Positions 2,078 to 64,000 of a stretch of DNA of 64,000 bases are shown here, piece after piece (the first letter of the stretch is position 1; each line of letters begins with the position of its first letter). The notes beneath the pieces are model-generated. The model was given only the letters and a program-made list of their open reading frames with translations, did no database searches and had not been told where the DNA came from. Origin of the DNA: Hydrangea macrophylla (lineage: Eukaryota > Streptophyta > Magnoliopsida > Cornales > Hydrangeaceae); contig CM066991.1 of the NCBI GenBank assembly GCA_033977485.1, positions 56,150,850-56,214,849 on the forward strand, in the 5' to 3' direction. A program made the position numbers and the translations under genes.

Positions 2078-2370
2078 AAAAAACCCTGTCACGCCCTGGA
2101 GCAGCATAAATAGAGCATAATAAATTTCCTTTATGGGTCCATAGGGAATGACAAGTGAAAGTCACTAATATCCACACCACACAGTACTAGTCCAAACGGG
2201 AACAGTAATCAACTAAAACATAAACACGGTTCTATCTATTACAAACATCAGAGTATGGTCCACAGGATCACAACAAGTCTGGAGACAACATATGCCTAAG
2301 TACCCATTAACTATAAAGTACAACAGTAAAAGAAAAGTAGTAACATAAACTACTATTTATCTTCAGGTCT

Positions 2371-2550
2371 TCAGCTGGCGTACGGATAGTCATCAGCCTG
2401 ACCGGCAACAGTGGGGTCGTTCTCTGCGTAACTCCCTTCAGGATAATAGTTATTGCCATATGTTCCGTCATCTGCATTGTAAAGGACAGGGTAGTCTGGA
2501 CGGGGAATATCCAGGCAATAAAGGTCGTCAGCTTGTTGAAAGCTGAGTAA
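2371..2550 (-). other. LTR-internal short reading frame, exon-like
   Basis: A frame with no ATG, about 59 codons long, on the minus strand inside the LTR. It ends at a TGA at 2373-2371. Its peptide is rich in Asp, Tyr, Asn, Pro and Gly (for example DYPVLYNADDGTYGNNYY) and has coding-like composition. An upstream stop is followed by the acceptor-like CTTACTCAG just before the frame, so it could be the second exon of a spliced leader transcript. I do not recognise the peptide and give it no function. Confidence 0.35.
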
Positions 2551-3372
2551 GCACTATCTCACACAGTCTCCTAGAAATAACATAATTACCATTATGAACA
2601 ATATAGGACAGTGATACTAAATATATTCCTTACTCGTTTATTCAGACATATCATTAATCGATTCTTATCAATTCCCACTCTAAGACTGATTTCACAATAC
2701 CCAACTGACTATCTCGAATTGATTATATCAGCACAACATACCAGTGCTCTTGTTCACCGCTATACCGCTTTTAACAACTCTTGCGAGCACCCATACATCG
2801 TTCTCATATAACGACTGGTCCATGGATGTACCCATACTCTTGTTCACCGCTTTTAAGAACTCTTACTGTTCACCACTTGTAAGAACGCTTGCGAGTACGA
2901 TACATACACAGCTCTGGTAAATATAAATAATGGGCGTGCCACAACTACTCTTGTTCACCACTTTTAAGAACTCTTACTGTTCACCGCTTTTAAGAATGCT
3001 TGCGAGTACTGTGCACCCATAATTCTCACGATCCTGATCAAATCCTTGACATACACTTATCGGATTCAACCTGAGCGAATCATCAGCTCGACTTACACAA
3101 CCTTGAACATACTAATCCTCTTACTGACTCACTTCTCAGTTATCCAAATACTACCCAGTATTATCATCTCAAACTTATCTCGTTATCGCGTCGTACTATT
3201 ACTAGCGCTCCGAACCCGACTACGTTACTCGCCATGTTATCTCAAATCTCATTATCGTATCCCATTACCTCCGAAATCCATAATATCGCATAATAGGAAT
3301 ATGGAACAAAGATTAAACAACTATGCATTATGCATAATAAACTGAAAAGAATACATTCATGTTCTGCTCGGG

Positions 3373-3538
3373 TTCGATCGATTGAGGTCCTCTGGATCGA
3401 TTGAGGAAAGGTGATGTCCGATCGATTGAAGTCTTTTCGATCGATCGAAGTGAAGGTGGTCTCAATCGATTGAACTTATTTCGATCGATTGAGACTTAGT
3501 GATGTTCGATCGATTGAACTCCGTTCGATCGGTCGAAC
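3373..3538. repeat. Palindrome cluster 1 (TTCGATCGATCGAA family)
   Basis: At least eight copies of a 14-base near-palindrome in 166 bp, spaced by 5-20 bases. Most differ from the consensus by C-to-T or G-to-A changes. In the transcriptional sense of this LTR it lies about 413-578 bp downstream of the TATA box. Confidence 0.85.
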
Positions 3539-3950
3539 TTCGTCTTCCACAGATTCTGCCAGTGAACGTGCAGAATGTGCTAGGGGTGTTTGGGTTATAA
3601 TTAATACGTCCAAAATATGTAAAACATCATAACTAAGTTACCGAGTGAGTTTGGAACTCACCAAAATTTGTTTAGGGCGCGTTTGGCTCGGTTGAAAGCT
3701 TCCAAGCTTCCTTCAATGGTGGCCTCTTCTCTCTGCTCCTCTCTTCGTCACTTCTATCTCTCTTTCTCTGCCTCTTCTTGTTCTTCTTCTTCTCCTTCTT
3801 CTCTTCTCCAAGCTGAGTATATATATATATATGTGGTGTGTGTATACATATAGATATGGAGGTAGGTGTATATATATGTACCAACACACGAGCACACACT
3901 CTCTCAACTCTCAAGGTTCAGCAAACTCCCCAACTCACACAAACACATGG

Positions 3951-3960
3951 TATATATAGG
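3951..3960 (-). promoter_or_regulatory. TATA box of the Tekay-like LTR
   Basis: CCTATATATA on the minus strand, the best TATA match in this LTR. A palindrome cluster lies 60-252 bp upstream, and a pyrimidine-rich then (TA)n leader follows. A longer (TA)n run near 3820-3835 is a weaker alternative. Confidence 0.5.
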
Positions 3961-4019
3961 GAGAATGAGGGTGCATGTGACCTGTTCTGCACAGAAACTA
4001 GAATTCAAATCATTACAAG

Positions 4020-4212
4020 TTCGATCGATCGAAGTATGTTCGATCGCTCGAGATCGATTCGGCCAGCTTTGATCGATCAAGAAGGGTTTGATCGATTGAA
4101 GTGGGGACCACGTATTAAATTCAAGTCGGTAGGGTTTCGATCAATTGAACAAGGTTCGATCGCTTGAACTTCTGGGATGCTCGATCGCTCGAACGAGCTT
4201 CGATCGATCGAA
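4020..4212. repeat. Palindrome cluster 2 (TTCGATCGATCGAA family)
   Basis: About eight full or half-decayed copies in 193 bp. They lie 60-252 bp upstream of the minus-strand TATA box at 3960-3951, in the U3 part of the Tekay-like LTR. Several copies carry GCTCGA in place of GATCGA. Confidence 0.85.
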
Positions 4213-4291
4213 GATGAAATTTCATGAAGGGTCAAAGGAAGTATATAGAATCTCTCTGCATTAAATAAATATAAAAATACAGGGTATTACA

Positions 4292-4823
4292 TGAGTTGAC
4301 CTACGTCCACGGGTGCGTCGGTACGCTTTCACTAACAGATCACCAGTGGGAACTGGTGAGCCAACACAGTAGGCGACACTACCAGCAAAACCGACCAGGT
4401 GTATGCATATGAGTGAATATAATATGCTATTATTTAGGTTTAGAATGCGACCCCCTTTAATGGGGGTGGGTGGCCTCTTTGATTGGTGCAAGAGACCACC
4501 CGTAAAAGGTAAGTATGCAGATTAGGAAGCTTTAATCTGATTATAATCAATTTACATGAATTTAGGAGAGTTTCCTAAGTGGTTTAGGAAACTACTTGCT
4601 CCTTCCATTTAGTCTTCTAGCTGGGATAGGTAATTGTCATGCCTTCTGGAGGCGCGCCCATGTGGGGCCAATCTGGAGCGAAAGCCCGGGCTTCTGACCG
4701 AACTAGGCGGTTTCATACAATGGCTTGAGAGGATTGAACAATAGACTTAGATTCAAGGTGACTTGACTTCTCTTTGCTGAGGTGGCGAGGTTTGACTTTG
4801 ACCAGACATTTTCGTACATATCA
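4292..4823 (-). repeat. 3' LTR of the Tat element, truncated by a nested insertion
   Basis: Direct-repeat partner of 14216-14840. Its outer ~75 bp (the end next to the target site) is missing because the Tekay-like element entered here. The first bases after that element are tgagt, the expected target-site duplicate, whose mate is beyond the left edge. Confidence 0.8.
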
Positions 4824-4840
4824 GTTGCCCCCCATTTTCG
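4824..4840 (-). other. Polypurine tract of the Tat element
   Basis: The minus strand reads CGAAAATGGGGGGCAAC immediately before the LTR start, the normal place for plus-strand priming. Confidence 0.75.
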
Positions 4841-14215: not shown

Positions 14216-14840
14216 TGATGATGCCAAAAATTGGGTAAGAGTAATTATATGAAAGAGATGAACACAATGAAGTTTGGATGTGGTTCGACCGTTAATGAGG
14301 TGACCTACATCCACGGGTGCATTAGTGTGCTTTCACTAACAGATCACCGACGGGAACTGGTGAGCCAACACAGTAGGCGACACTACCAGCAAAACTGACC
14401 GGGTGTATGCGTATGAGTGAATATATTATGCTATAGAATGTGACCCCCTTTAATGGGGGTGGGTGGCCTCTTTTATAGGTACAAGAGACCACCCATACAA
14501 GGTAAGTCTGCAGATTAGGAAGCTTTAATCTGATTACAATCAATTTACATGAATTTAGGAGAGTTTCCTAAGTGGTTTAGGAACCTACTTGCTCCTTCTA
14601 TTTAGTCTTCTAGCTGGGATAGGTAATTGCCTGGTTGCCCGCTGGGCAAGCAACTACGCCTTCTGGAGGTGCGCCCATGTGGGGCCAATCTGGAGCGAAC
14701 GCCCAGGCTTCTGACCGAACCGGGTGGTTTCATACAACAGCTCAGGAGGATTGAATAGTAGACCTGGATTCAAGGTGAATTGACTTCTCTTTGCTGAGGT
14801 GGCAAGGTTTGACTTTGACTAGACATTTTCGTACATATCA
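14216..14840 (-). repeat. 5' LTR of the Tat element
   Basis: 625 bp bounded by TG...CA. It aligns with 4292-4823 through shared blocks, including CACTAACAGATCACC, GGGAACTGGTGAGCCAACAC and the 3' block ending in TTTTCGTACATATCA. On the minus strand it starts TGATATGTACGAAAATG. Confidence 0.85.
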
Positions 14841-14842
14841 GA

Positions 14843-24670: not shown

Positions 24671-24928
24671 ATCACTACAAAGTGGGGGTATTTGTAAAAT
24701 ACAACCGCGCTAAAAGGAAGAATTGCATTCGTTTTAATCACAACTTCCCGTTTTATCTGCAATTTGCATTACAAGGCTAGTTTTCATACAATGTGATTAA
24801 TCTATGATAAGCAGTATTGTTTTAGCTATTGTTTGTGCAGATCACTACAGTGTGGACTAGAAAGATGAACATCAGGACAACTGGGATGCCGGAATGCAAA
24901 CAAAAGAATTCAAAGCTAAAGTTTGAAG

Positions 24929-25039
24929 TTCGAGCGATCGAAGCTAGTTCGAGCGATCGAACGTTCGATCGCTTAAAGAAGGTTGAAGTGCTTGAGTTCC
25001 AAATGTTAGATCGATCGAGAAATGTTTGATCGACCGAAC
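24929..25039. repeat. Palindrome cluster 3 (inner 5' LTR, upstream of TATA)
   Basis: About five TTCGATCGATCGAA-type cores, lying 67-177 bp upstream of the TATA box. The same cluster is in the 3' LTR at 37884-37993 with small C/T differences. Confidence 0.85.
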
Positions 25040-25105
25040 ATGGTATTTTCAGAAACTTTCGCGTACACAGCAGTTGCGGAATTGTAACCCTAGCCTTTAG
25101 GTTTT

Positions 25106-25115
25106 CTATATATAT
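25106..25115 (+). promoter_or_regulatory. TATA box of the inner Athila LTR
   Basis: CTATATATAT after GGTTTT, with the start of the transcript expected about 30 bp downstream near GTATACGTCCCGAGGG. An identical site is at 38061-38070. Confidence 0.6.
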
Positions 25116-25536
25116 GAGCATTGTATACGTCCCGAGGGACGCCCAACTTTGCTTTTCATCAGTTTTTAGAGAGAGAGATAGAGAGTTTACATTGTTTTGT
25201 AGGTTTTTGTTCAAGGTTTTATGTTGTGAGCTCGGATTCTTATAGTTTAAATATGAATTTTTCGTTCCAGGTTACTTATTTATTGTTTCAGTTACATTTT
25301 GCACTTAGTTAATCGTAGTTTAATCTTCAATCTCGTAGTATTGCATGCTAGATAAGTTAAAATCACTAGTTTCATAGTTTTCATGAAAAACTCACATCCA
25401 AACAACGCCTTAATGTTTTCATATGTTAAATACCAACCTGTGACACTCCAGACGATGTCTGAGTAGTCCTAAGGTTGGGAGAACACAATGAAACAGTGAT
25501 CTTCAGCCTCTGCCATGCAGCAGAATAAATCCTGTG

Positions 25537-25656
25537 TTCGATCGATCGGAGGTAGTTCGATCGATCAAACCAGAGATAGTCAAGCGATCGAAGGACATTT
25601 CGATCGATTGAGGGATGAAGGCTTTCGATCGATCGAACGATCGTCGATCGATCGAA
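25537..25656. repeat. Palindrome cluster 4 (inner 5' LTR, downstream of TATA)
   Basis: About five or six cores, beginning 422 bp after the TATA box. The mate in the 3' LTR is 38492-38611. Confidence 0.85.
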
Positions 25657-26329
25657 CTCTCTGATTCTTGAGGATGTTCCCTGCAGTATTCCAGGACCTT
25701 TTGTTTTTCGAACTCTCTGATTCTTGAGGATGTTCCCTGCAGTCCCCAAACGCTCAGTTTGTCAAAACAGTTTTTAAAATCAAGGCCCTAAGGCATTTTC
25801 TTTCAATATATTTTTCAAACCACTTTCAATGCTAACACCATTGTAGGTGCGAGTCTTAACTATTGAATTAAACCGCTTTCATGTGTTTCAAGTTAACTGT
25901 GATGCTATAGTCCCGGTCATGAAAGGGCTATGGAATCTTTATTTTCAGAGAAATACGAAAAACTGTGGGCAATATACTCCTTAGTGCTTCAAAGTAACTG
26001 CATGGTAGATGGTTAGATTATTGTGGATTTGTGTAATCCCAACACTTTCTTCTTAAAGTTAAATCTTATTTTAGAGTATTGTTTTAACTAGCTAATTAGT
26101 TCTTTAATTTAATCTAAATTGTTTTCGTTAGTAGTCTTAGTTTGTGGGACTTCGTGTTCTGCACCATTATTAAATCTTATTGATTTTTTTTTCTTTCGAG
26201 TTTAGTCTAAGCTAATAGGTCAACACCTTCCCTGTGGGATCGACCTGGTCTTACCAGTTACTACTTGCACGTCTACCTACACTTGGGTATTGCACAAGAG
26301 CACACAAGATTATTCGTGTGTCAAGTTTT

Positions 26330-33450: not shown

Positions 33451-33643
33451 TTCGATTGATCGAACCTATTTCGATCGATCGAAAACCCTGCATGTTCAAG
33501 CGCTTGAACGCTTTATTCAATCAATTGAGAGATTTACTTTCGATCGCTCGAACGTTGTTCGATCAATCGAACGTTTTTTTAAACGAGGCATCTTCAGCAC
33601 ACCTCTTCATTTACCTCACTCTCACACACTCAAGCGCTCGAAC
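33451..33643. repeat. Palindrome cluster 5 (internal)
   Basis: About six TTCGATCGATCGAA-type cores, some with AAGCGCTCGAA or CAATCGA variants, outside any LTR. Confidence 0.8.
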
Positions 33644-33907: not shown

Positions 33908-34027
33908 TTCGATCGATTAAACTGGTTTCGATCGATCGAAGCCGACATGTTCGATCGATCGAACTATGCTCAAGTGATCGAAGACTACTCCAGTTTAATC
34001 GATCGAACTAAGTTAGATCGATCGAAC
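33908..34027. repeat. Palindrome cluster 6 (internal, before ORF start)
   Basis: Six cores in 120 bp, among the best preserved (for example TTCGATCGATCGAA at 33928 and 33950), ending about 70 bp before the acceptor-like site of the next ORF. Confidence 0.85.
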
Positions 34028-34108
34028 TAGAGCAGTAGCAGTTTCTTTCTTTTCTCTTCCCTGTTCTAATCTGTGTCGTGTGTGTGTTCTATTTTCAGGG
34101 CTGCCACG

Positions 34109-35524
34109 ATGAATCCAGTAAATGGCTACCACAAGTCCAAGCCCCTTAGCCTCACTATACCTGATCCGGTACCCGCACATGGGTTCCGGAATGATGAGGA
34201 TCGGGGATGGTACGAGCGTTATTTCCGGGCACGGAAGGTGATGATGGAGCGTCCTGTCGAGTCTATTTGGTCGGAGTACCCGTGGTTCCTGACACGGATT
34301 TGCTCCATGCCCCACTGGTTCCATTTACTCTCGCTTGCCAAGAGAGTAAATCTGTCATGGATACGAGGTGCGTGCGCGACGATGATACGCGACCCGGACG
34401 CACCGTTCACATATCATGCTTTCTTCCGGGGTCGGGCATTCGTCATCAGTCCCGCTACAGTTTCGGCCGCCTTGGCGGTACCAGAGGTACCAGATTATAT
34501 TTGCCCCCATCGGCCTGACGCACCTGAGATCCCACCATCTGCCATTATCCGCGAGCTCACCGGAGGCGCCGTTCCTTCTTGGAATGGCGATGCTTTGATT
34601 GAGGACCATTTCCTTACCGACGACTACCACATGCTCCATCTGGTCCTCAGCAATTGCCTCCTGGTGACCTCTTATCGAGAGAAGATCGCAGCTTGGTATG
34701 TGCGAGTCTTATTTGCAGTGGGGACAGGACAGCCGGTCTGCTTATCACGGCTTTATATCAATTTTATGGTCCATCCCACCCGCTACATCGCCTCCAAGAG
34801 GCACCTGAAAGGTGCTTGGGCGATTCACAGAGTTATGGCTCAGGCCGATTTTCCTGAGCTTGCTAGAGACGACCTTCGTTCTTCCCCCAGCCGATTCGGC
34901 GAGGCAACGGCTCGCCGCTCAGACGGCCAGAAGAGGAAACGAAAGGGGAAAGGGAAAGCGAAGGTGGGGGCGAAGAAGAAGAGGCGTGGTGGGACAGACA
35001 CAGAGGCTGGAGTTTCAGGGATGCCCACAGAGGCCGAGGAGCTTGATACAAACGATGAGGAGGAGGATCCGGTTGCTGCTGTTCAGTAGTTCGAGTTGCG
35101 ACAGCGGTCGCAGACTCAGGCCCAGGGAGAGTCTTCTTCCTCTGTGCCTCTCCCGACAATTTATGAGCTGCTATTGGAGGAGAGAGAGGCCAGGATTAGA
35201 CTTGAGGGCCGGATGGATTAGCTGCAGACCCTGCTTGAGTCTATATTGATTCAGATTGGGGTCGATCAGGCCGTTCACTCTGCTCACCATCCTACGACTA
35301 CCCCGTCTGCACCGCCTGCTGCCGATCCAGCATCTTCAGCTGCTCCTACTCCTACAGGTCCATCCACTACTTCTGCTGCAGCCGATCCATCACTTTCTGC
35401 TCCACTTACTGCTGATCTTCCATTCACTTCTAATACTGCTGCACCTGCTACTGCACCGCTGCCACCTACTCCCATTGACATTCCTTCTGACGTGGCTGAT
35501 GATGATCCGTCGGGAGCCGCGTAG
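34109..35524 (+). pseudogene. Second post-integrase ORF: plant-transposon-type domain, basic region, Pro/Thr tail
   Basis: ATG at 34109 in the context GCCACGATG, ten bases after a splice-acceptor-like TTTTCAG. An in-frame ATG at 34073 lies before the acceptor and is less likely. Residues 20-260 form a globular region (WYERYFRARKVMMERPVES; HAFFRGRAFVISPATVSAAL; YRYIA-like region near VHPTRYIASKRHLKGAW) resembling the 'putative plant transposon protein' / Athila ORF family. Residues about 280-300 are very basic (KRKRKGKGKAKVGAKKKRR), a likely nuclear localisation signal. An acidic stretch, a coiled segment (LLEEREARIRLEGRM) and an Ala/Pro/Thr tail follow. TAGs at 35087 and 35219 are each one C-to-T change from CAG. 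Role unknown; likely expressed from a spliced RNA. Confidence 0.65.
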
Positions 35525-37630: not shown

Positions 37631-37883
37631 TGCAAAGTGGGGGTATTTGTAAAATACAACCGCGCTAAAAGGAAGAATTGCATTGGTTTTGATCACAACT
37701 TCCCGTTTTATCTGCAATTTGCATTACAAGGCTAGTTTTCATACAATGTGATTAATCTATGATAAGCTGTATTGTTTTAGCTATTGTTTGTGCAGATCAC
37801 TACAGTGTGGACTAGAAAGATGAACATCAGGACAATTGGGATGCCGGAATGCAAACAAAAGAATTCAAAGCTAAAGTTTGAAG

Positions 37884-37993
37884 TTCGAGCGATCGAAGCT
37901 AGTTCGAGCGATCGAACGTTCGATCGCTTAAAGAAGGTTGAAGCACTTGAGTTCCAAATGTTAGATCGATCGAGAAATGTTCGATCGATCGAA
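37884..37993. repeat. Palindrome cluster 7 (inner 3' LTR, upstream of TATA)
   Basis: Counterpart of 24929-25039. It keeps a perfect TTCGATCGATCGAA near its end where the 5' LTR copy has decayed by transitions. Confidence 0.85.
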
Positions 37994-38491
37994 CATGGTA
38001 TTTTCAGAAACTTTCGCGTACGCAACAGTTGCGGAATTGTAACCCTAGCCTTTAGGTTTTCTATATATATGAGCATTGTATACGTCCCGAGGGACGCCCA
38101 ACTTTGCTTTTCATCAGTTTTAAGAGAGAGAGATAGAGAGTTTACATTGTTTTGTAGGTTTTTGTTCAAGGTTTTATGTTGTGAGCTCGGATTCTTATAG
38201 TTTAAATATGAATTTTTCGTTCCAGGTTACTTATTTATTGTTTCAGTTACATTTTGCACTTAGTTAATCGTAGTTTAATCTTCAATCTCGTAGTATTGCA
38301 TGCTAGATAAGTTAAAATCACTAGTTTCATAGTTTTCATGAAAAACTCACATCCAAACAACGCCTTAATGTTTTCATATGTTAAATACCAACCTGTGACA
38401 CTCCAGACGATGTCTGAGTAGTCCTAAGGTTGGGAGAACACAATGAAACAATGATCTTCAGCCTCTGCCATGCAGCAGAATAAATCATGTG

Positions 38492-38611
38492 TTCGATCGA
38501 TTGGAGGTAGTTCGATCGCTCGAACCAGAGATAGTCAAGCGATCGAAGGACATTTCGATCGATTGAGGGATGAAGGCTTTCGATCGATCAAACGATCGTC
38601 GATCGATCGAA
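38492..38611. repeat. Palindrome cluster 8 (inner 3' LTR, downstream of TATA)
   Basis: Counterpart of 25537-25656, again 422 bp after the TATA box. Confidence 0.85.
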
Positions 38612-39269
38612 CTCTCTGATTCTTGAGGATGTTCCCTGCAGTATTCCAGGACCTTTTGTTTTTGAGAGTTGTTATCATACTGTCCCCAAACGCTCAGTTT
38701 GTCAAAACAGTTTTTAAAATCAAGGCCCTAAGGCATTTTCTTTCAATATATTTTGCAAACCACTTTCAATGCTAACACCATTGTAGGTGCGAGTCTTAAC
38801 TATTGAATTAAACCGCTTTTATGTGTTTCAAGTTAACTGTGATGATATAGTCCCGGTCATGAAAGGGCTATGGATTCTTTATTTTTAGAGAAATACGGAA
38901 AACTGTGGGCAATATACTCCTTAGTGCTTCAAAGTAACTGCATGGTAGATGGTTAGATTATTGTGCATTTGTGTAATCCCAACACTTTCTTCTTAAAGTT
39001 AAATCTTATTTTAGAGTATTGTTTTAACTAGCTAATTAGTTCTTTAATTTAATCTGAATTGTTTTCGTTAGTAGTCTTAGTTTGTGGGACTTCGTGTTCT
39101 GCACCATTATTAAATCTTATTGATTTTTTTTTTCTTTCGAGTTTATTCTAAGCTAATAGGTCAACACCTTCCCTATGGGATCGACCTGGTCTTACCAGTT
39201 ACTACTTGCACGTCTACCTACACTTGGGTATTGCACAAGAGCACACAAGATTATTCGCGTGTCAGTCAC

Positions 39270-43540: not shown

Positions 43541-44551
43541 CTTTATATTGGGTTTGTGCCCTCAAACCATTACTTTATGTATGAGACATTGATATTTTAA
43601 TATATGGATATCAGCTTTACATTTCATTATGTATGTTTCTTTCATGAGATTGTTGATCCTTAAGTGTCATAGTAATTAATTCGTGTGTGTATGAGATACA
43701 TACAAGTGAGATACGAATTACTATTCATTGATACTTAGAACTTGTCACAGTGGATGATGAGACTGGATATCTCATCAGGTTTACACTGTAGCATGATTAA
43801 CTACCATTGGATGGAGTGATGAATCTCAATCACTAGAGTGTAACTCTTAGTAAATATGCTAGTGCTTATAGTGCATTGACAGACCTGAGCTTTCTTATTG
43901 ACACTCAAGACTGTCAAACAGTCAATAGGAACTCATAACTTGTATAAGGTACGTGTTCTCAATCTTGAGACGATTATGAACACACACTGTGGATATGACT
44001 GCTTTGACTTATCAATCAGTGAGGTCTACAGAAGATCAACACCTGGGTATCTTGGGTATGTCATGTTCATAGGGTTGTGAACATATATTGTCAAGATAGA
44101 ATCTACCCTCTGTTTCAGAGTAAGCATTCTCTTGAGAATGTCACCAAGTCGATTACTGAGTACTGCAGTCTTGTTGATAAGAGTTATCAACATGTTTGGT
44201 AAACATGAGAGGTGAATGGGACTCAAGGAATACAATAAGTAATCAATATTCAGGTTGACAGTAACAGTTATCTGACTACCTGAATATGATTACGAATGCT
44301 GAAGGTAGAGGGACATTAGTACAACATACAAGTCTAGTTATCGCTTCAGATATGTTCTTTTGAGTTGGAGTTCAGTTATCATTTTATAGTGGAGTAAACA
44401 TTAACTGATCAGTTGGTTAGTTTGCTGATCAAAGAGTTTGGTCATGGTAATTAACAAACCGGTCTGAGCCAACAATAAAGAGCCTAGGAGGTCCCACTCT
44501 TAGCTCCGCCAGGATACTTGGAAAGACACTTGAGGAAGCTATCAAGACAGG

Positions 44552-44662
44552 TTCGATCGATTGAAGCTAGTTCGATCGATCGAAGTCATGGCAGGTTCGA
44601 TCGATCGAGAATGGTTCGATCGATCGAACATTCGATCGATCGAAGTCCTTCGATCGATTGAA
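44552..44662. repeat. Palindrome cluster 9 (copia solo LTR)
   Basis: Six cores in 111 bp, three of them perfect TTCGATCGATCGAA, ending 22 bp before the TATA box. This is the best preserved cluster in the window. Confidence 0.9.
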
Positions 44663-44683
44663 GGTTAGGTCGATTTTGGGAAT

Positions 44684-44693
44684 CTATAAATAG
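44684..44693 (+). promoter_or_regulatory. TATA box of the copia LTR
   Basis: CTATAAATAG, a strong plant TATA box, conserved in the second copy at 50671-50680. Confidence 0.65.
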
Positions 44694-45023
44694 GGCAGCT
44701 GCGTTCTGGAAAAGAAGTTCGTCGTTTTAGAACGTCAGAAGCTGCAGAAACTGTTTTAGAGCCCCAAAAGCCTCTTCTTCCTCTCTATTAGAGATCCTAC
44801 CATCTCTAGTCTCTCCAGGAAGGAGACATAAGGGTGAAGACAACCTAGTGGAGGCTGCTGCATCACCAAGGAAGAAGAAGAAATCAGAATTGGGTTCAAG
44901 ACACTAAGGTATACGCATCTATGGAATTGACGAGTAGTAGATCCTGGGCTACCTTTAAGTTTTTACAACTTGATTTTTCCGCTGCGCGTTTAAACTTTTA
45001 ATTTTAAAGCGGTTTTTCCATCA

Positions 45024-49611: not shown

Positions 49612-51037
49612 TGTTGGGATTATGCCCTCAAACCATTACTGTATGCATGAGACATTGACATTTTATATATGGATATCAGTTTACAATTTACTATATATGT
49701 TTCATGAGATGATTGTTTATAATACTTAAGTATTCTAGTAGATAATTCGTGTATGTATGAGATACATACATGTGAGATATGAATTACTATTCTTTGATAC
49801 TTAGAACTTGTCACAAAGATGATGAGACTGGATATCTCATCAGATATACATTGTATCATAATTAACTACCATTGGATGGAGTGATGAATTTTAATCGCTA
49901 GAATATGACTCTTAATTAATATGCTAGAGCTTATAGTGCATTGACAGGCCAAGAGCTTTTCTATTGACATCTAAAAATTGTCAACAGTCGATAGGAACTC
50001 ATAACTTGTATAAGGTACGTGTTCTTAATCTTGAGATGATTATGGATACAGACTATGGATGTGAATGCTTTGATTTACCAATTAGTGAGGACTTCAAGAT
50101 CAATACCTGGGTATCTTGGGTAAGTCATGTTCATAGGGTTGTGAACATATATTGTCAATATAGAATCTACCCTATGATATAAAGTAAGCATTCCTTTGAG
50201 AATGTCACCAAGTTGATTACTGGGAACTACAGTCTTGTTGATAAGTAGTTATCAACATATTTGGTAATCATGAGAGGTGAATGAAACTAAGGAATGGGAA
50301 GAAGTAATTATCATTCCGGTCGATAGTTACAGTTATTCGACTACGATTTTGAATGCTAAAGGTAGAGGGTCTAGTTATTGCTTCGGATATGTTCTTTTGT
50401 GTTAGAGTGCAATTATCGTTATATAGTGGAGTTAACATTGAGTGATCTATTGGTTAATTCATTGATTAAATAGTTTGATCATGGGAATTAATGACTAGTC
50501 TTAGCTAAGAATAAAAAAAACTAGGAGGTCCCACTCTTAGCTCGGCAAGAATACTTGGAAAGGAAGAAGGACGTAAACCAATCGATTGAACTTCTTTCAA
50601 TTTATTGGTGACTTGTCTTAATCAATCGAAACGAGATCAATCGATTGAAACCAAAAGTCATTTTGAAAACCTATAAATAGGAGAGCTGTGTGCAGAATGA
50701 AGTTGAACGTCATTTTTACTACTCCAGCATTCCAAAAATTATTTTAGGATTTTTCTTAGCCTCCCTCACCTCTCTATTAGGTTCCCATAAACCCTAGCCT
50801 CTCTGGGAAGTGTTCAAGGAGACATAAGGGTGAAGATTTACTAGAGAAAGCTGCTGGATATTGCTACACATCAAATAAAGAAGACAATCTGAATTGGGTT
50901 CAAGACTAATAGGTAATACACTCTTCCCTACGCATCTACAGATCGATGAAAAGTAGATATGGCTTACCAATAAACTTTTTGAACTTTTTTTTTCCGCTGC
51001 TCATGATTTAACGTTCTTTCAAAACCTAAATCCATCA
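49612..51037 (+). repeat. Copia 3' LTR
   Basis: 1426 bp, TGTTGGGATTATGCCCTC... to ...AAATCCATCA, preceded by the purine tract ACACGTGGGAGT. TATA box at 50671-50680 and a decayed palindrome cluster at 50579-50650. It is noticeably diverged from 43546-45023 by substitutions and small indels. Confidence 0.88.
50579..50650. repeat. Palindrome cluster 10 (copia 3' LTR, decayed)
   Basis: AATCGATTGAA-type remnants, 21-92 bp upstream of the TATA box. Most CpG positions of the consensus are now TpG or CpA, and one unit has become TTTCAATTTATTGG. Confidence 0.7.
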
Positions 51038-52647
51038 TATATTTGGTCAGACATAGAGAGATCCCACAACTCTATGTAGCCCGTTTTATAGTCGAATGTG
51101 AGTTTTTTTGACGGGCGCCAGGAGAAGCTTCTGTGCTGGGAAACTCAGGTTAGATGTTTTGTGTAATCTCTAGACTAAGATTCGTATGGTGTTACTTATT
51201 TTGTTTAACATATAGTGACATGCCAATTTTTATGGAATAACGATATAGCATACATATCATACTGTATGTGCTTTCGCGATTGACTGAGCAGTGAATGGAT
51301 TCAACTTCATTACTGTATGAGTCATGTAGCATATCTAAAATTTAGTTATCCTACAAATTGGTTGCCTTTACGACTTGAGACTATGTTATGAAGAGGATAC
51401 TTGATGATAGCTACTTTAGCATATTATCCTAGGGTAAAGAGAAGATTCCATTCTATAGGGGCATGTCTTAACAAGAGGTCAAGTTAGTCAGATTGACATG
51501 GAGGCTCAGGGAAGACCATTCAATAACACACCATGTTTTGTGACTCATTAGCCAGCCTGAGATAATCATATTTATAACTGATATGTAGTGAGTACATTAC
51601 ACTGAGGAGGTGTAGCACTTCTTTTTCACCAAAGGATTGAGAATGTTTACTAGCTATGGTGATGATTGGCATTACACTTCTGTCGATGCAATTTCTTTTC
51701 GTAAGGTCGCACATTCTATTTCCTATATCAAGAGTTGAGAAGTTCTGTTTCGAGAGATTTTTTTGTGACTAGCCCCTATGTAGGTGAGTGGGAGATGTAG
51801 GAAATAATGTGGACCTTTGGGGCACCCACATAATATTAGACCGGGTCCAATAAGGTTTTGTTAAGGCACCAAGAAATCCTTTGGGATGGGCTGTTGGAAA
51901 CCTAGAGCAATTAGGTGTTTGTGTACCTATATATATGTATATATAACATAAACACATACTTTTCCCTCTCTCAATTCGGCTGCCTCTCTCAGTCTCTCTT
52001 TCTCTTACAGTTTTCTTTCTCTAAGTCCATCACCATTGGTGTCTTGGGATTTGCGCGTGATATCAATGGAGATCACTCTAGTAGTGCCTTCTATGACCAA
52101 TAAGAAGCACAAGAGAGCATACGGAAGCTTTGTAGGAGCAGTCGTTCGTGTGCTTCATCGTCTGGCTCGTAACAATGCCAAACATCGATCCGTCAAGCTA
52201 TACTTTGCTAGGTAAGACCTAAACCCAACTCATATGCATGTGTGCATATTCATTTACACAGACCATACATGAACTTCAAAACCACCATATCTCATATGCA
52301 ACCCATTAAATCATAGTAAGAAATCCACATTTTTCCGATATGAAAAAGATTTAGATATACAAGCAACAACAAAAATCAACAGTAATTACACAGTTGAGAT
52401 TAGGGTAAACCAAGCAAGATGATTACTTTGCTTCAAAAAGAGCCAAACAAATCTCTAGATCTGCAAGATTAACAAGAGAAAGAGATGAGAGTGACCATAT
52501 ATATATGTTTATATATATAGCAGTAAAGGTCGAGAGAGAGATCGAAAAGAAAAGACAGGAAAGTGAGTGAGAGAGAGAGAGAGAGAAAGGAGAGGCCATA
52601 TAAATGTGCGCACATATAGAATATATATACATATATCTATATGGTCA
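51038..52647. other. Unassigned region
   Basis: No supported gene. A GT-AG-like exon end (TTTGCTAG followed by GTAAGACC at about 52215) after an ATG-rich stretch from about 52065 could be leader sequence of another LTR element. Microsatellites: (TA)n at 51930-51945 and 52497-52520, and (GA)n at 52560-52590. Confidence 0.4.
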
Positions 52648-59870: not shown

Positions 59871-59962
59871 ATCGCGCGTGCGGGCCCCGCTCACGCAAAA
59901 ATCCAGATATCGCTCGCGCGACCTCCAGAAATCACACTTGCACCGCCCGCTCACGCGACCTG
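59871..59962. repeat. GC-rich words of the fourth Athila-like LTR
   Basis: Three CpG-dense words (ATCGCGCGTGCGGGCCCCGC; CGCTCGCGCGACCTCC; CCCGCTCACGCGACCTGTG) in 92 bp, upstream of the TATA box. Confidence 0.65.
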
Positions 59963-60098
59963 TGTAAAAATCAAAGTTGCGTATTTCAGTGTACTAAAGA
60001 TCCCCACATGAACGAAACTGTCCAATTATGTCCAGATTGTAAAATATAGCAGTTTTAGTGCGAATAGGTTTAGGAAAGTCTCCAAACTTGCTCCAAAT

Positions 60099-60108
60099 CT
60101 ATATATAT
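60099..60108 (+). promoter_or_regulatory. TATA box of the fourth Athila-like LTR
   Basis: CTATATATAT, conserved at 63652-63661 in the second LTR copy. GC-rich words lie 137-228 bp upstream. Confidence 0.55.
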
Positions 60109-60990
60109 CCTATTGTAAATCAATTAGGGGGTTGGACATTAATAGACACACCATATACACATCAATACACACAACAATATAGGCATCCATTGAAGAGAGG
60201 GAAGCAAGGAGAAGAAGAAGAAGACCAAGGATTTCCATGGCCTCCTCCATCAACCTCTTGTCGTTCATCAATTCTATGGCCAACTAAACCTAGATCTAGG
60301 ATTTCAATAAAACCGTAGCCAAGTAATAGGGTGTTATTTATGTTTTTCTTTTAGTTTTATTATGTATGAATGATGATTACATGTTTAGAGAATTTTTATA
60401 ATAAAATCGTACTTCTAGTGATTAAATCATTGCTTTCAAAATCTATTCTTGTCTTAGATCTATTTTGACTGTGATGTGCTCAATGATCTATATTTGCTGT
60501 GCTTGTATGGATTATTTACATGTAATGGTACTTAATTGAATTGTGCTATCAAGTATCCAAATAGTCCATGCCTAGATTAGACGGATTATGCCACAACCCT
60601 AGTTTAGTGTGGGATAATTCGTGCAAACTGAAGATGGATTATGTTGGTGCTTGAACCATAGTTATCTTCTTGACAGAGGAATTGGGCTTGTAGCTACAAT
60701 TCCCCACTATCATCCAACTTAATAAGCTAATTGAATTCATCAATATTCCTATTATGAAGCTAGTGGGGGATTTGCAATCCTAGGTTCCCTAAACATATTC
60801 ATAAAAACCAATTTTAAATTGCTTTCGTAGTTTAAATTTATTTTCATTAGTTTCATTAGTTTAATTAAAATTCAAATCAGAATCTGTTTTCTTAATTAAT
60901 TAGATTTAGATTTCAAAACTAAAAGCTGTAGTAATTCAATCTCTGTGGGTTCGACCTTTACTTCCACACTACAAATCTAAAGAAAGTAAA

Positions 60991-63310: not shown

Positions 63311-63485
63311 GTTAAAATAAATAATCCATTCATCGATGCGATAAAGCAAATTCCTGCTTACGCTAAATGCCCTAAAGACCTATGTACTCAAAAGCACAAA
63401 TTGCGTAGTCATACTCCTAAAAAGGTCTTTCTTACTGAAAAAGGTCTTTCATACTCCTAAAAAGGTCTTTCTTACCTCCATAAAT
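63311..63485 (+). pseudogene. Gag-protease linker remnant and deletion junction
   Basis: VKINNPFIDAIKQIPAYAKC and KDLCTQKHKLRSHTPKKVFL continue the gag-protease polyprotein as in the other Athila copies. A 26-bp perfect direct repeat (63410-63435 and 63450-63475) lies at the junction, and LTR sequence follows. Protease proper is absent. Confidence 0.7.
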
Positions 63486-64000
63486 CGTGCTCGCGCGGCC
63501 TGCTCGCGCGACCTGTGTAAAAATTAAAGTTGCGTATTTTAGTGTACTGAAGATCCCCACATAAACGAAACTGCCTAATTACGTCCAGATTGTAAAATAT
63601 AGTTGTTTCAGTGCGAATAGGTTTAGGAAAGTCTCCAAACTTGCTCCAAATCTATATATATCTTATTGTAAATCAATTAGGGGGGTTGGACATTAATAGA
63701 CACACCATATACACATCAATATACACAACAATATAGGCAGCCATTGAAGAGAGGGAAGCAAGGAGAGGAAGAAGAAGAAGACCAAGGATTTCCATGGCTT
63801 CCACCATCAACCTCTTGCCGTTCATCAATTCTATGGCCAACTAAACCTAGATCTAGGGTTTCAATGAAACCGTAGCCAAGTAATAGGGTGTTATTTATAT
63901 TTTTCTTTTAGTTTTATTATGTATGGATAATGATTACATGTTTAGAGGATTTTTATAATAAAATTGTACTTCTCGTGATAAAATCATTGCTTTCAAAATC
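63486..64000 (+). repeat. 3' LTR of the fourth Athila-like element, partial
   Basis: Matches 59933-60447. Its first part is missing through the deletion, and the window ends within it. TATA box at 63652-63661; two GC-rich words at 63486-63511. Confidence 0.8.

What the first reader, a model, noticed from the sequence alone, without database searches (positions are those of the whole stretch)
44552..44693. Same palindrome cluster just upstream of the TATA box in LTRs of three unrelated retrotransposon lineages
Seen directly: clusters of TTCGATCGATCGAA and variants lie 60-252 bp upstream of the TATA box in the Tekay-like LTR (4020-4212, TATA 3951-3960, minus strand), 67-177 bp upstream in the inner Athila LTRs (24929-25039, TATA 25106; 37884-37993, TATA 38061), and 21-132 bp upstream in both copia LTRs (44552-44662, TATA 44684; 50579-50650, TATA 50671). 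Ty1/copia, Athila and Tekay LTRs are not homologous, so common descent of whole LTRs cannot explain it. Inference: a shared cis-regulatory module, spread by recombination or template switching or kept by selection for one host factor that binds the palindrome. I do not know of a described system of this kind.
Basis: partly seen in the sequence, partly recalled or inferred. Interest (0 to 1): 0.9.

Follow-up and report, generated by a model that had tools for sequence, protein, structure and literature searches.

The report
One palindrome code in unrelated retrotransposons
In one plant genome, three unrelated kinds of jumping gene carry the same 14-letter mirror-image DNA word in arrays with the same strict spacing around their start switches, which looks like a docking platform for one and the same protein and resembles, but goes beyond, a pattern described in one genus of such elements.

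Summary
Observation confirmed and larger than reported. TTCGATCGATCGAA (up to 2 mismatches) occurs 46 times in the window against 0.17 expected, and exactly 101,717 times in the 2.22-Gb genome against 8 for the reversed word. The nine window clusters lie in three lineages: copia, Athila and a Tekay-like chromovirus. Four are upstream of a TATA box; five lie downstream in LTRs or beside the Athila env-region ORF. With the motif masked, the lineages show no clear similarity (best E 0.012), yet they share the degenerate motif YTCRAKCGMTYGAR and a spacing rule. Exact pairs genome-wide: 9,533 at 5 bp, 5,277 at 2 bp, 355 at 3-4 bp, 83 at 6-8 bp. Sites are conserved between elements, though they tend to decay faster than the rest of the LTR after insertion. 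Best reading: selected arrays of binding sites for one dimeric DNA-binding factor, used by unrelated elements. Factor and effect are inferred. Closest described: palindromic repeated motifs of Sireviruses (PMC2829016). New variant of a known kind.

The parts
2087..4292 (-). LTR of the Tekay-like chromovirus (the other LTR lies left of the window, L021:4442-6645, 96.8% identical)
4020..4212 (-). U3 cluster, 8 sites, steps 19,29,19,49,19,25,19 (plus-strand order); TATA 61 bp beyond the last site
3951..3960 (-). TATATATA box of the Tekay-like LTR
3373..3537 (-). second cluster in the same LTR, downstream of the TATA, 8 sites, steps 19 and 25 alternating
24690..26322 (+). 5' LTR of the inner Athila element (approximate bounds)
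24929..25038 (+). Athila U3 cluster; 5 detected sites plus one degenerate site placed by eye between 24964 and 25006, which gives steps 19,16,19,23,19; TATA 68 bp downstream
25537..25656 (+). Athila LTR cluster downstream of the TATA, 6 sites
33451..33571 (+). Athila internal cluster, upstream part, between pol and the env-region ORF
33908..34026 (+). Athila internal cluster, steps 19,23,19,25,19, about 44 bp before the stop-to-stop ORF 34070-35089
34070..35089 (+). env-region ORF (stop to stop); weak match to PF20167, 34.2 bits, below the cut-off of 45; no env domain found
37645..39263 (+). 3' LTR of the inner Athila element (approximate bounds)
37884..37993 (+). Athila 3' LTR U3 cluster
38492..38611 (+). 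Athila 3' LTR downstream cluster
43547..45023 (+). 5' LTR of the copia element (approximate bounds)
44552..44662 (+). copia U3 cluster, 6 sites, steps 19,25,19,16,18; TATAAATA starts at 44685
49612..51080 (+). 3' LTR of the copia element (end approximate)
50579..50650 (+). decayed copia U3 cluster of the 3' LTR, no site within 2 mismatches

Best explanation
The clusters are arrays of binding sites for one sequence-specific, probably dimeric DNA-binding protein, or one family of them, that helps these elements to be transcribed. The site is the degenerate palindrome YTCRAKCGMTYGAR (two half-sites YTCRAKC), and A is avoided just outside it. Sites are set in pairs 5 bp apart; pairs are joined mostly by 2, 9 or 11 bp. 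Arrays sit before the TATA box of the LTR, again behind it (in the LTR of Athila and Tekay-like elements, in the leader of copia), and beside the env-region ORF of Athila, where an internal start would be needed. Shown: motif, grammar, places, presence in some LTR families and absence from others, sharing by three lineages, and between-element constraint. Inferred: that a protein binds, that it is a host factor rather than one encoded by an element, that it activates or keeps silencing away, and that each lineage gained sites separately and multiplied them by tandem duplication.
For: Abundance against control 101,717 to 8. Spacing, exact pairs genome-wide: 9,533 at 5 bp, 5,277 at 2 bp, 355 at 3-4 bp, 83 at 6-8 bp, all reversed controls 0. 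The same tolerated changes in all three lineages, counted without a degenerate model at up to 2 mismatches in 72 clusters: half-site position 6 T>G 21/23/12 (copia/Athila/Tekay-like) against T>C 1/0/2 and T>A 1/0/0; position 4 G>A 28/29/34 against C>T at position 3 of the same CpG 10/10/10; position 5 changes 0/1/0 in 138/135/59 sites. Methylation decay alone should hit both strands of a CpG alike, and transitions should outnumber transversions. Genome-wide the transversion variant TTCGAGCGATCGAA (9,627+9,690) exceeds the transition variant TTCGACCGATCGAA (1,892+1,769). Site identity exceeds flank identity in 9 of 9 cluster classes and spacer identity in 9 of 9. LTR pairs of 5 elements: sites 18/728 differ against 104/7403 in the rest; 14 between-element pairs: sites 192/1990 against 2942/18232; odds ratio 2.65, p 0.0009; 5 non-overlapping between-pairs: odds ratio 2.97, p 0.0006. 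Fixed distance to the TATA in copia: 22 bp in 11 of 12 U3 clusters examined, 23 in one.
Against: No binding, expression or chromatin data. I could not name a protein with this specificity. Step sizes 16, 19, 23 and 25 do not keep all sites on one helix face (10.5 bp per turn). The within/between test rests on few changes: the faster decay of sites within elements is p 0.036 by itself and is seen in 3 of 5 elements, the other two having no site change; sites change more slowly than the rest in 13 of 14 between-element pairs, not in copL22a-copL29. Adding the sixth, old copia LTR pair weakens the test (odds ratio 1.50, p 0.043; 1.68, p 0.025 with non-overlapping pairs), and its columns are pooled. 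Rows share ancestry, and both LTRs of some elements are counted. Genome-wide counts mix many copies of few families, so they show amplification as well as constraint. Two Athila U3 clusters (L035, L036) have no TATAWA match closer than 238 bp.
Confidence: 0.62

Rival explanations
1. Spread by exchange: a site array arose once and was passed between copia, Athila and Tekay-like elements by template switching or nested insertion and recombination; afterwards the spacers diverged.
For: Identical step strings in different lineages: 19,23,19,25,19 in the copia leader (L022), the Athila LTR (L027, L036) and the Athila env region (window); the copia U3 string 19,23,19,16,19 (L022) mirrors the Athila U3 string 19,16,19,23,19 if one degenerate Athila site placed by eye is counted. 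Copia and Athila share five 5-bp spacers on the same strand, seven on either strand.
Against: No clear similarity outside the motif (best E 0.012 with the motif masked). Five shared spacers against a null mean of 2.35, null maximum 9. Only three joining spacers are common, so equal strings are not very improbable by chance.
Confidence: 0.2
2. Nucleic-acid structure: neighbouring palindromes pair as stems with 5-base loops in RNA or single-stranded DNA (dimerisation, packaging, or a source of small RNAs).
For: Two palindromes 5 bp apart form a 14-bp stem with a 5-base loop. Neighbour complementarity is slightly above shuffled neighbours, 11.62 against 11.41 of 14, reached by 4 of 1000 shuffles. 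Palindrome regions of maize Sirevirus LTRs are small-RNA hotspots (passages of PMC5311732).
Against: A 2-bp spacer, the commonest after 5 bp among the lengths tested, cannot be a free hairpin loop. Changes that an RNA stem tolerates (C>T, giving G-U) are not favoured over G>A on the element's sense strand: 40/34 copia, 49/54 Athila, 28/87 Tekay-like (sums, sites found with the degenerate model). The two halves of a site do not covary (297 of 1000 shuffles reach the observed value).
Confidence: 0.1
3. Host defence mark: the arrays are kept because a host factor uses them for silencing, or they are a by-product of repeat dynamics without benefit to the element.
For: CpG-rich palindromes are possible methylation targets; spacers change faster between elements than the rest (290/846 against 2942/18232), as expected of unstable repeats.
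Against: Elements should lose silencing sites, yet the sites are constrained, and nearly identical LTR pairs show recent insertions that carry them (L022 99.87%, R Athila 99.51%). Repeat dynamics does not explain a shared half-site code in unrelated elements.
Confidence: 0.08

Closest known systems
Repeated motifs (RM) of Sireviruses (Ty1/copia), Bousios et al. 2010, PMC2829016 (abstract, passages and section 9 read)
   Same: Many palindromic boxes in the LTR shortly before the TATA box; further boxes upstream of env in env-bearing elements; CpG-rich; no function tested. The Tnd-1 box ACAATCGATTGT shares the core ATCGAT.
   Different: Most Sirevirus elements have their own palindrome, mostly around CGG-CCG, and that paper reports the RM absent from classic copia elements; gypsy elements were not part of what I read. 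Here one palindrome with one spacing rule is shared by a copia family and two gypsy lineages. The copia family lacks the Sirevirus PPT octamer AGGGGGAG (0 in L022).
Heat-responsive elements in LTRs of several Brassicaceae COPIA families, Pietzenuk et al. 2016, PMC5059998 (abstract and passages read)
   Same: Putative sites of one kind of host factor found in several retrotransposon families, in ONSEN by duplication of a proto-site.
   Different: Families within COPIA; heat-shock sites, not arrays of a 14-bp palindrome; tied to heat by expression tests, whereas here the factor is unknown.
VANC-bound motif arrays of VANDAL DNA transposons, PMC5735166, 2017 (passages read)
   Same: Short motif at high density in non-coding parts, grown by tandem duplication.
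   Different: The VANC21 motif is YAGTATTAY, arrayed in one orientation and rare in other elements; VANC6 has different motifs and targets. Not a palindrome and not shared by unrelated element classes.
Palindromes in maize Sirevirus LTRs, Bousios et al. 2016, Genome Research (not held; cited and summarised in PMC5311732, passages read)
   Same: Palindrome-rich regulatory region of LTRs with fast change.
   Different: Sireviruses only; small-RNA targets there, not tested here.

Membership tests
Sirevirus repeated motif (RM) cluster | palindromic boxes in many copies in the LTR, shortly upstream of the TATA box | tested here: met
   copia 22-23 bp in 12 of 12 U3 clusters examined; window Athila 68 bp (L035 and L036 none near); window Tekay-like 61 bp
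Sirevirus repeated motif (RM) cluster | further boxes upstream of env in env-bearing elements | tested here: inconclusive
   Athila clusters 33451-33571 and 33908-34026 lie before ORF 34070-35089; the ORF is env-like by position only, no env domain
Sirevirus repeated motif (RM) cluster | host element is a Sirevirus (PPT octamer AGGGGGAG, multiple copies) | tested here: not met
   no AGGGGGAG in L022; Athila and Tekay-like elements are gypsy
Sirevirus repeated motif (RM) cluster | CGG-CCG core | tested here: not met
   consensus YTCRAKCGMTYGAR; the Sirevirus Tnd-1 lacks it too
Heat-shock element of LTRs | GAAnnTTC/TTCnnGAA units | tested here: not met
   in the consensus the TTC and GAA ends are 8 bp apart, seen directly in the sequence (HSE definition recalled)
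VANC-type motif array | motif density in non-coding parts, grown by tandem duplication | tested here: inconclusive
   partly similar 11-bp spacers within the Tekay-like array (GAAAGGTGATG, ACTTAGTGATG) and common site orientation in Tekay-like sites (A at position 4 0.70 against T at position 11 0.08)
VANC-type motif array | bound by an anti-silencing protein encoded by the element | not testable with these tools
   no binding data; no candidate protein identified

The most novel reading that the evidence does not exclude
A genome-wide shared regulatory code: one trans-acting protein (host activator or an anti-silencing factor) is exploited by three unrelated LTR-retrotransposon lineages, which converged on the same paired 14-bp site, the same allowed spacings and the same places around their promoters, so that their activity in this plant rises and falls together.
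Probability: 0.4. Interest if true: 0.85.

Novelty: new variant of a known kind. Interest (0 to 1): 0.72.

Why it matters
If one protein reads these arrays, the activity of three retrotransposon lineages hangs on one host or element factor, and the 101,717 exact sites are a very large potential sink or platform for it. It would be a clean natural case of convergence, or of regulatory exchange, between Ty1/copia and Ty3/gypsy elements, and the spacing rule makes the factor findable by a simple binding screen.

Tried and rejected
One transposed unit inserted by chance in these LTRs: rejected, since flanks and spacers differ. Simple CpG decay as the source of the variant forms: rejected as the sole cause, because of strand and position bias. 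Heat-shock element: half-sites too far apart. Sirevirus membership of the copia family: the PPT octamer is missing in L022; an RT-based tree was not made. RNA stem: no G-U bias. Literature: TTCGATCGATCGAA anywhere, 0 papers; TCGATCGATCGA with retrotransposon and LTR, 0 papers; five further searches on palindromes or shared motifs in LTRs and one each on heat-responsive COPIA, VANDAL anti-silencing and Magnolia genomes gave the papers cited, of which I saw listings, abstracts, passages or one section. The pair with 5-bp spacer in IMG/VR: 0, which says little, as that collection holds viral contigs. Organism: 19 contigs and 2.22 Gb recall Magnoliaceae; the Magnolia biondii paper gives ~2.22 Gb and 19 chromosomes but only 1.98 Gb placed (PMC7917104, passages), so the identity stays a guess. 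Pair complementarity gave a weak excess and is told as such.

Full report
OBSERVATION. The motif TTCGATCGATCGAA with up to two mismatches is found 46 times in the window; 100 dinucleotide-preserving shuffles gave a mean of 0.17 and at most 2. The hits form nine clusters. Five were not named: 3373-3537, 25537-25656 and 38492-38611 lie in the same LTRs downstream of the TATA, and 33451-33571 and 33908-34026 lie inside the Athila element, the second about 44 bp before a stop-to-stop ORF in the env position. The cluster of the second copia LTR is decayed.

GENOME SCALE. The genome holding the window has 2,221,998,752 bases in 19 contigs. The exact 14-mer occurs 101,717 times; the same word read backwards occurs 8 times. 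In a contiguous 200-kb stretch of another chromosome there are 44 matches within two mismatches, 14 of them exact, in 10 clusters; I assign six to one Athila element and four to two Tekay-like LTRs by alignment and layout. The two matches there that stood alone by a 110-bp cut-off also lie in one of those LTRs. The motif is present in some LTR families and absent from others: of candidate LTR pairs that I picked from self-alignments, 7 of 8 in that stretch and 2 of 4 in the window have no site within one mismatch of the degenerate motif (not all pairs were checked as LTRs, and not all self-alignments were used).

LINEAGES. Two young copia elements (L022, L023) with LTR pairs 99.87% and 99.33% identical are relatives of the window copy (about 84-85% identical over the longest alignment) and carry RVT_2, rve and SH3_retrovirus. 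The inner Athila element has gag, protease, RT-RNase H and integrase domains and the primer site GGCGCCGTTGCCGGGG. The Tekay-like element has 2.2-kb LTRs (96.8% identical), an SH3_Tf2-1 integrase tail and LTR ends TGTAAT...GTGACA. The lineage names Athila and Tekay rest on such marks by recall, and no RT was seen in the Tekay-like copies. Of 22 loci on C1 that I fetched because they hold the motif (L022-L043), 12 are copia, 8 Athila and 2 Tekay-like (L037 is placed by its Ty3-type gag and layout only). These loci are not a random sample.

GRAMMAR. In all three lineages most sites come in pairs 19 bp apart (5-bp spacer), and pairs are joined mostly by 2, 9 or 11 bp (steps 16, 23, 25; steps 16 and 23 are not among those listed for the Tekay-like arrays). 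In the enlarged set of 72 clusters the steps 16, 19, 23 or 25 make up 117 of 127 (copia), 124 of 139 (Athila) and 60 of 81 (Tekay-like). The string 19,23,19,25,19 is found in the copia leader (L022), in Athila LTRs (L027, L036) and in the Athila env region of the window. Copia U3 in L022 (19,23,19,16,19) and Athila U3 are mirror images, if one degenerate Athila site that I placed by eye is counted. Genome-wide, two exact words 0-30 bp apart occur 24,268 times: 9,533 at 5 bp, 5,277 at 2 bp, 355 at 3-4 bp, 83 at 6-8 bp. The 4,313 at 12-22 bp enclose a third site in nearly all of the listed cases. The lengths 0-1, 9-11 and 23-30 bp were not counted apart, so 9 and 11 bp rest on the fetched clusters. 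All reversed controls are 0. Spacer letters vary widely: 34, 30 and 21 different 5-bp spacers in copia, Athila and Tekay-like clusters.

SITE CODE. Counting plain differences from the word at up to two mismatches in 138 copia, 135 Athila and 59 Tekay-like sites (both LTRs of some elements included), the same changes are tolerated in each lineage. Half-site position 1 changes T>C (23, 38, 17), position 4 G>A (28, 29, 34) and position 6 T>G (21, 23, 12). Position 6 shows T>C only 1, 0, 2 times and T>A 1, 0, 0 times, and position 5 is nearly invariant (0, 1, 0). Position 3 C>T, the other strand of the same CpG as position 4, is rarer (10, 10, 10). Just outside the site A is avoided in all three lineages (0.09, 0.06, 0.05). 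Genome-wide, the transversion variant at position 6 has 19,317 places on both strands and the transition variant 3,661. Mutation alone would favour the opposite order, although amplification of a few families adds to such counts.

CONSTRAINT. In nine cluster classes aligned with 150-bp flanks, mean pairwise identity of site columns is 0.83-0.98, above the flanks in 9 of 9 and above the spacers in 9 of 9; spacers are below the flanks in 7 of 9. Site columns were found by the motif itself, which favours them somewhat. The two LTRs of one element are identical at insertion, so their differences show decay without selection. Pooled over five elements, sites differ at 18 of 728 positions and the rest at 104 of 7403 (p 0.036), so sites decay faster, as CpG-rich words should; this holds in 3 of the 5, and the other two have no site change. 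Between elements the order is reversed: sites 192 of 1990, spacers 290 of 846, rest 2942 of 18232 in 14 overlapping pairs, sites being slower in 13 of the 14 (odds ratio 2.65, p 0.0009). With five non-overlapping between-element pairs the odds ratio is 2.97 (p 0.0006). The sixth and oldest pair, the window copia element (19 of 60 sites, 275 of 1310 rest), lowers these to 1.50 (p 0.043) and 1.68 (p 0.025). Selection therefore seems to have acted on the spreading lineages, not on the resting copies.

ORIGIN. With the motif masked, LTRs, leader and env region of different lineages show no clear similarity (best E 0.012, Athila env region against copia leader). Shared 5-bp spacers are near the null: 5 against mean 2.35 for copia and Athila, 1 against 1.2 for copia and Tekay-like, 1 against 1.3 for Athila and Tekay-like. 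This speaks against a recent transfer of a whole array. Partly similar spacers within the Tekay-like array and its common site orientation suggest growth by tandem duplication.

MECHANISM. Positions around the start of transcription, a two-fold symmetric degenerate code, strict spacing with free spacer sequence, and constraint beyond that of the surrounding LTR are what an array of sites for a dimeric DNA-binding protein would show. That a protein binds, which one, and whether it activates or counters silencing is inference. An RNA-stem reading is disfavoured: a 2-base loop is not feasible, and there is no preference for G-U-compatible changes (C>T against G>A 40/34, 49/54, 28/87). The weak excess of neighbour complementarity is the one result in its favour.

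KNOWN. The nearest description is the repeated motif of Sireviruses (PMC2829016): palindromic boxes upstream of the TATA box and of env, with a different palindrome in most elements and confined to one copia genus in that data set. Here a copia family without the Sirevirus PPT octamer and two gypsy lineages use one word and one spacing. Sites of one factor in several copia families are known for heat-shock elements (PMC5059998), and motif arrays grown by tandem duplication for VANC targets (PMC5735166). I found no paper with this word. That is a statement about open-licence papers only.

Noticed in passing
G000:C1, 0.1-1.3 Mb (positions): The positions of motif copies in the first 1.3 Mb of C1 repeat with the same distances about 503 kb further on and again in mirrored order, which looks like a large tandem and inverted duplication or an assembly artefact.
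   Followed up: no
clusters in all three lineages: Spacers between sites change about twice as fast between elements as the rest of the LTR (290/846 against 2942/18232), although not clearly faster within elements (6/309 against 104/7403).
   Followed up: partly
L037, L038 and window 2087-4292 with L021: Short elements (repeat distances of about 5.5-5.6 kb; for L038 from the positions) that keep motif-bearing LTRs but seem to have lost much of pol, i.e. apparent non-autonomous relatives of the Tekay-like and Athila families.
   Followed up: partly
L022:2048-2344, L023:7288-7586: The copia elements carry two more clusters in the leader between 5' LTR and gag, outside the LTR.
   Followed up: yes
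window 4287-4824 / 14292-14841 and 59921-60443 / 63474-64000: Direct repeat pairs (86% and 93%) without a site within one mismatch of the degenerate motif, apparently LTRs or repeats of other families.
   Followed up: no
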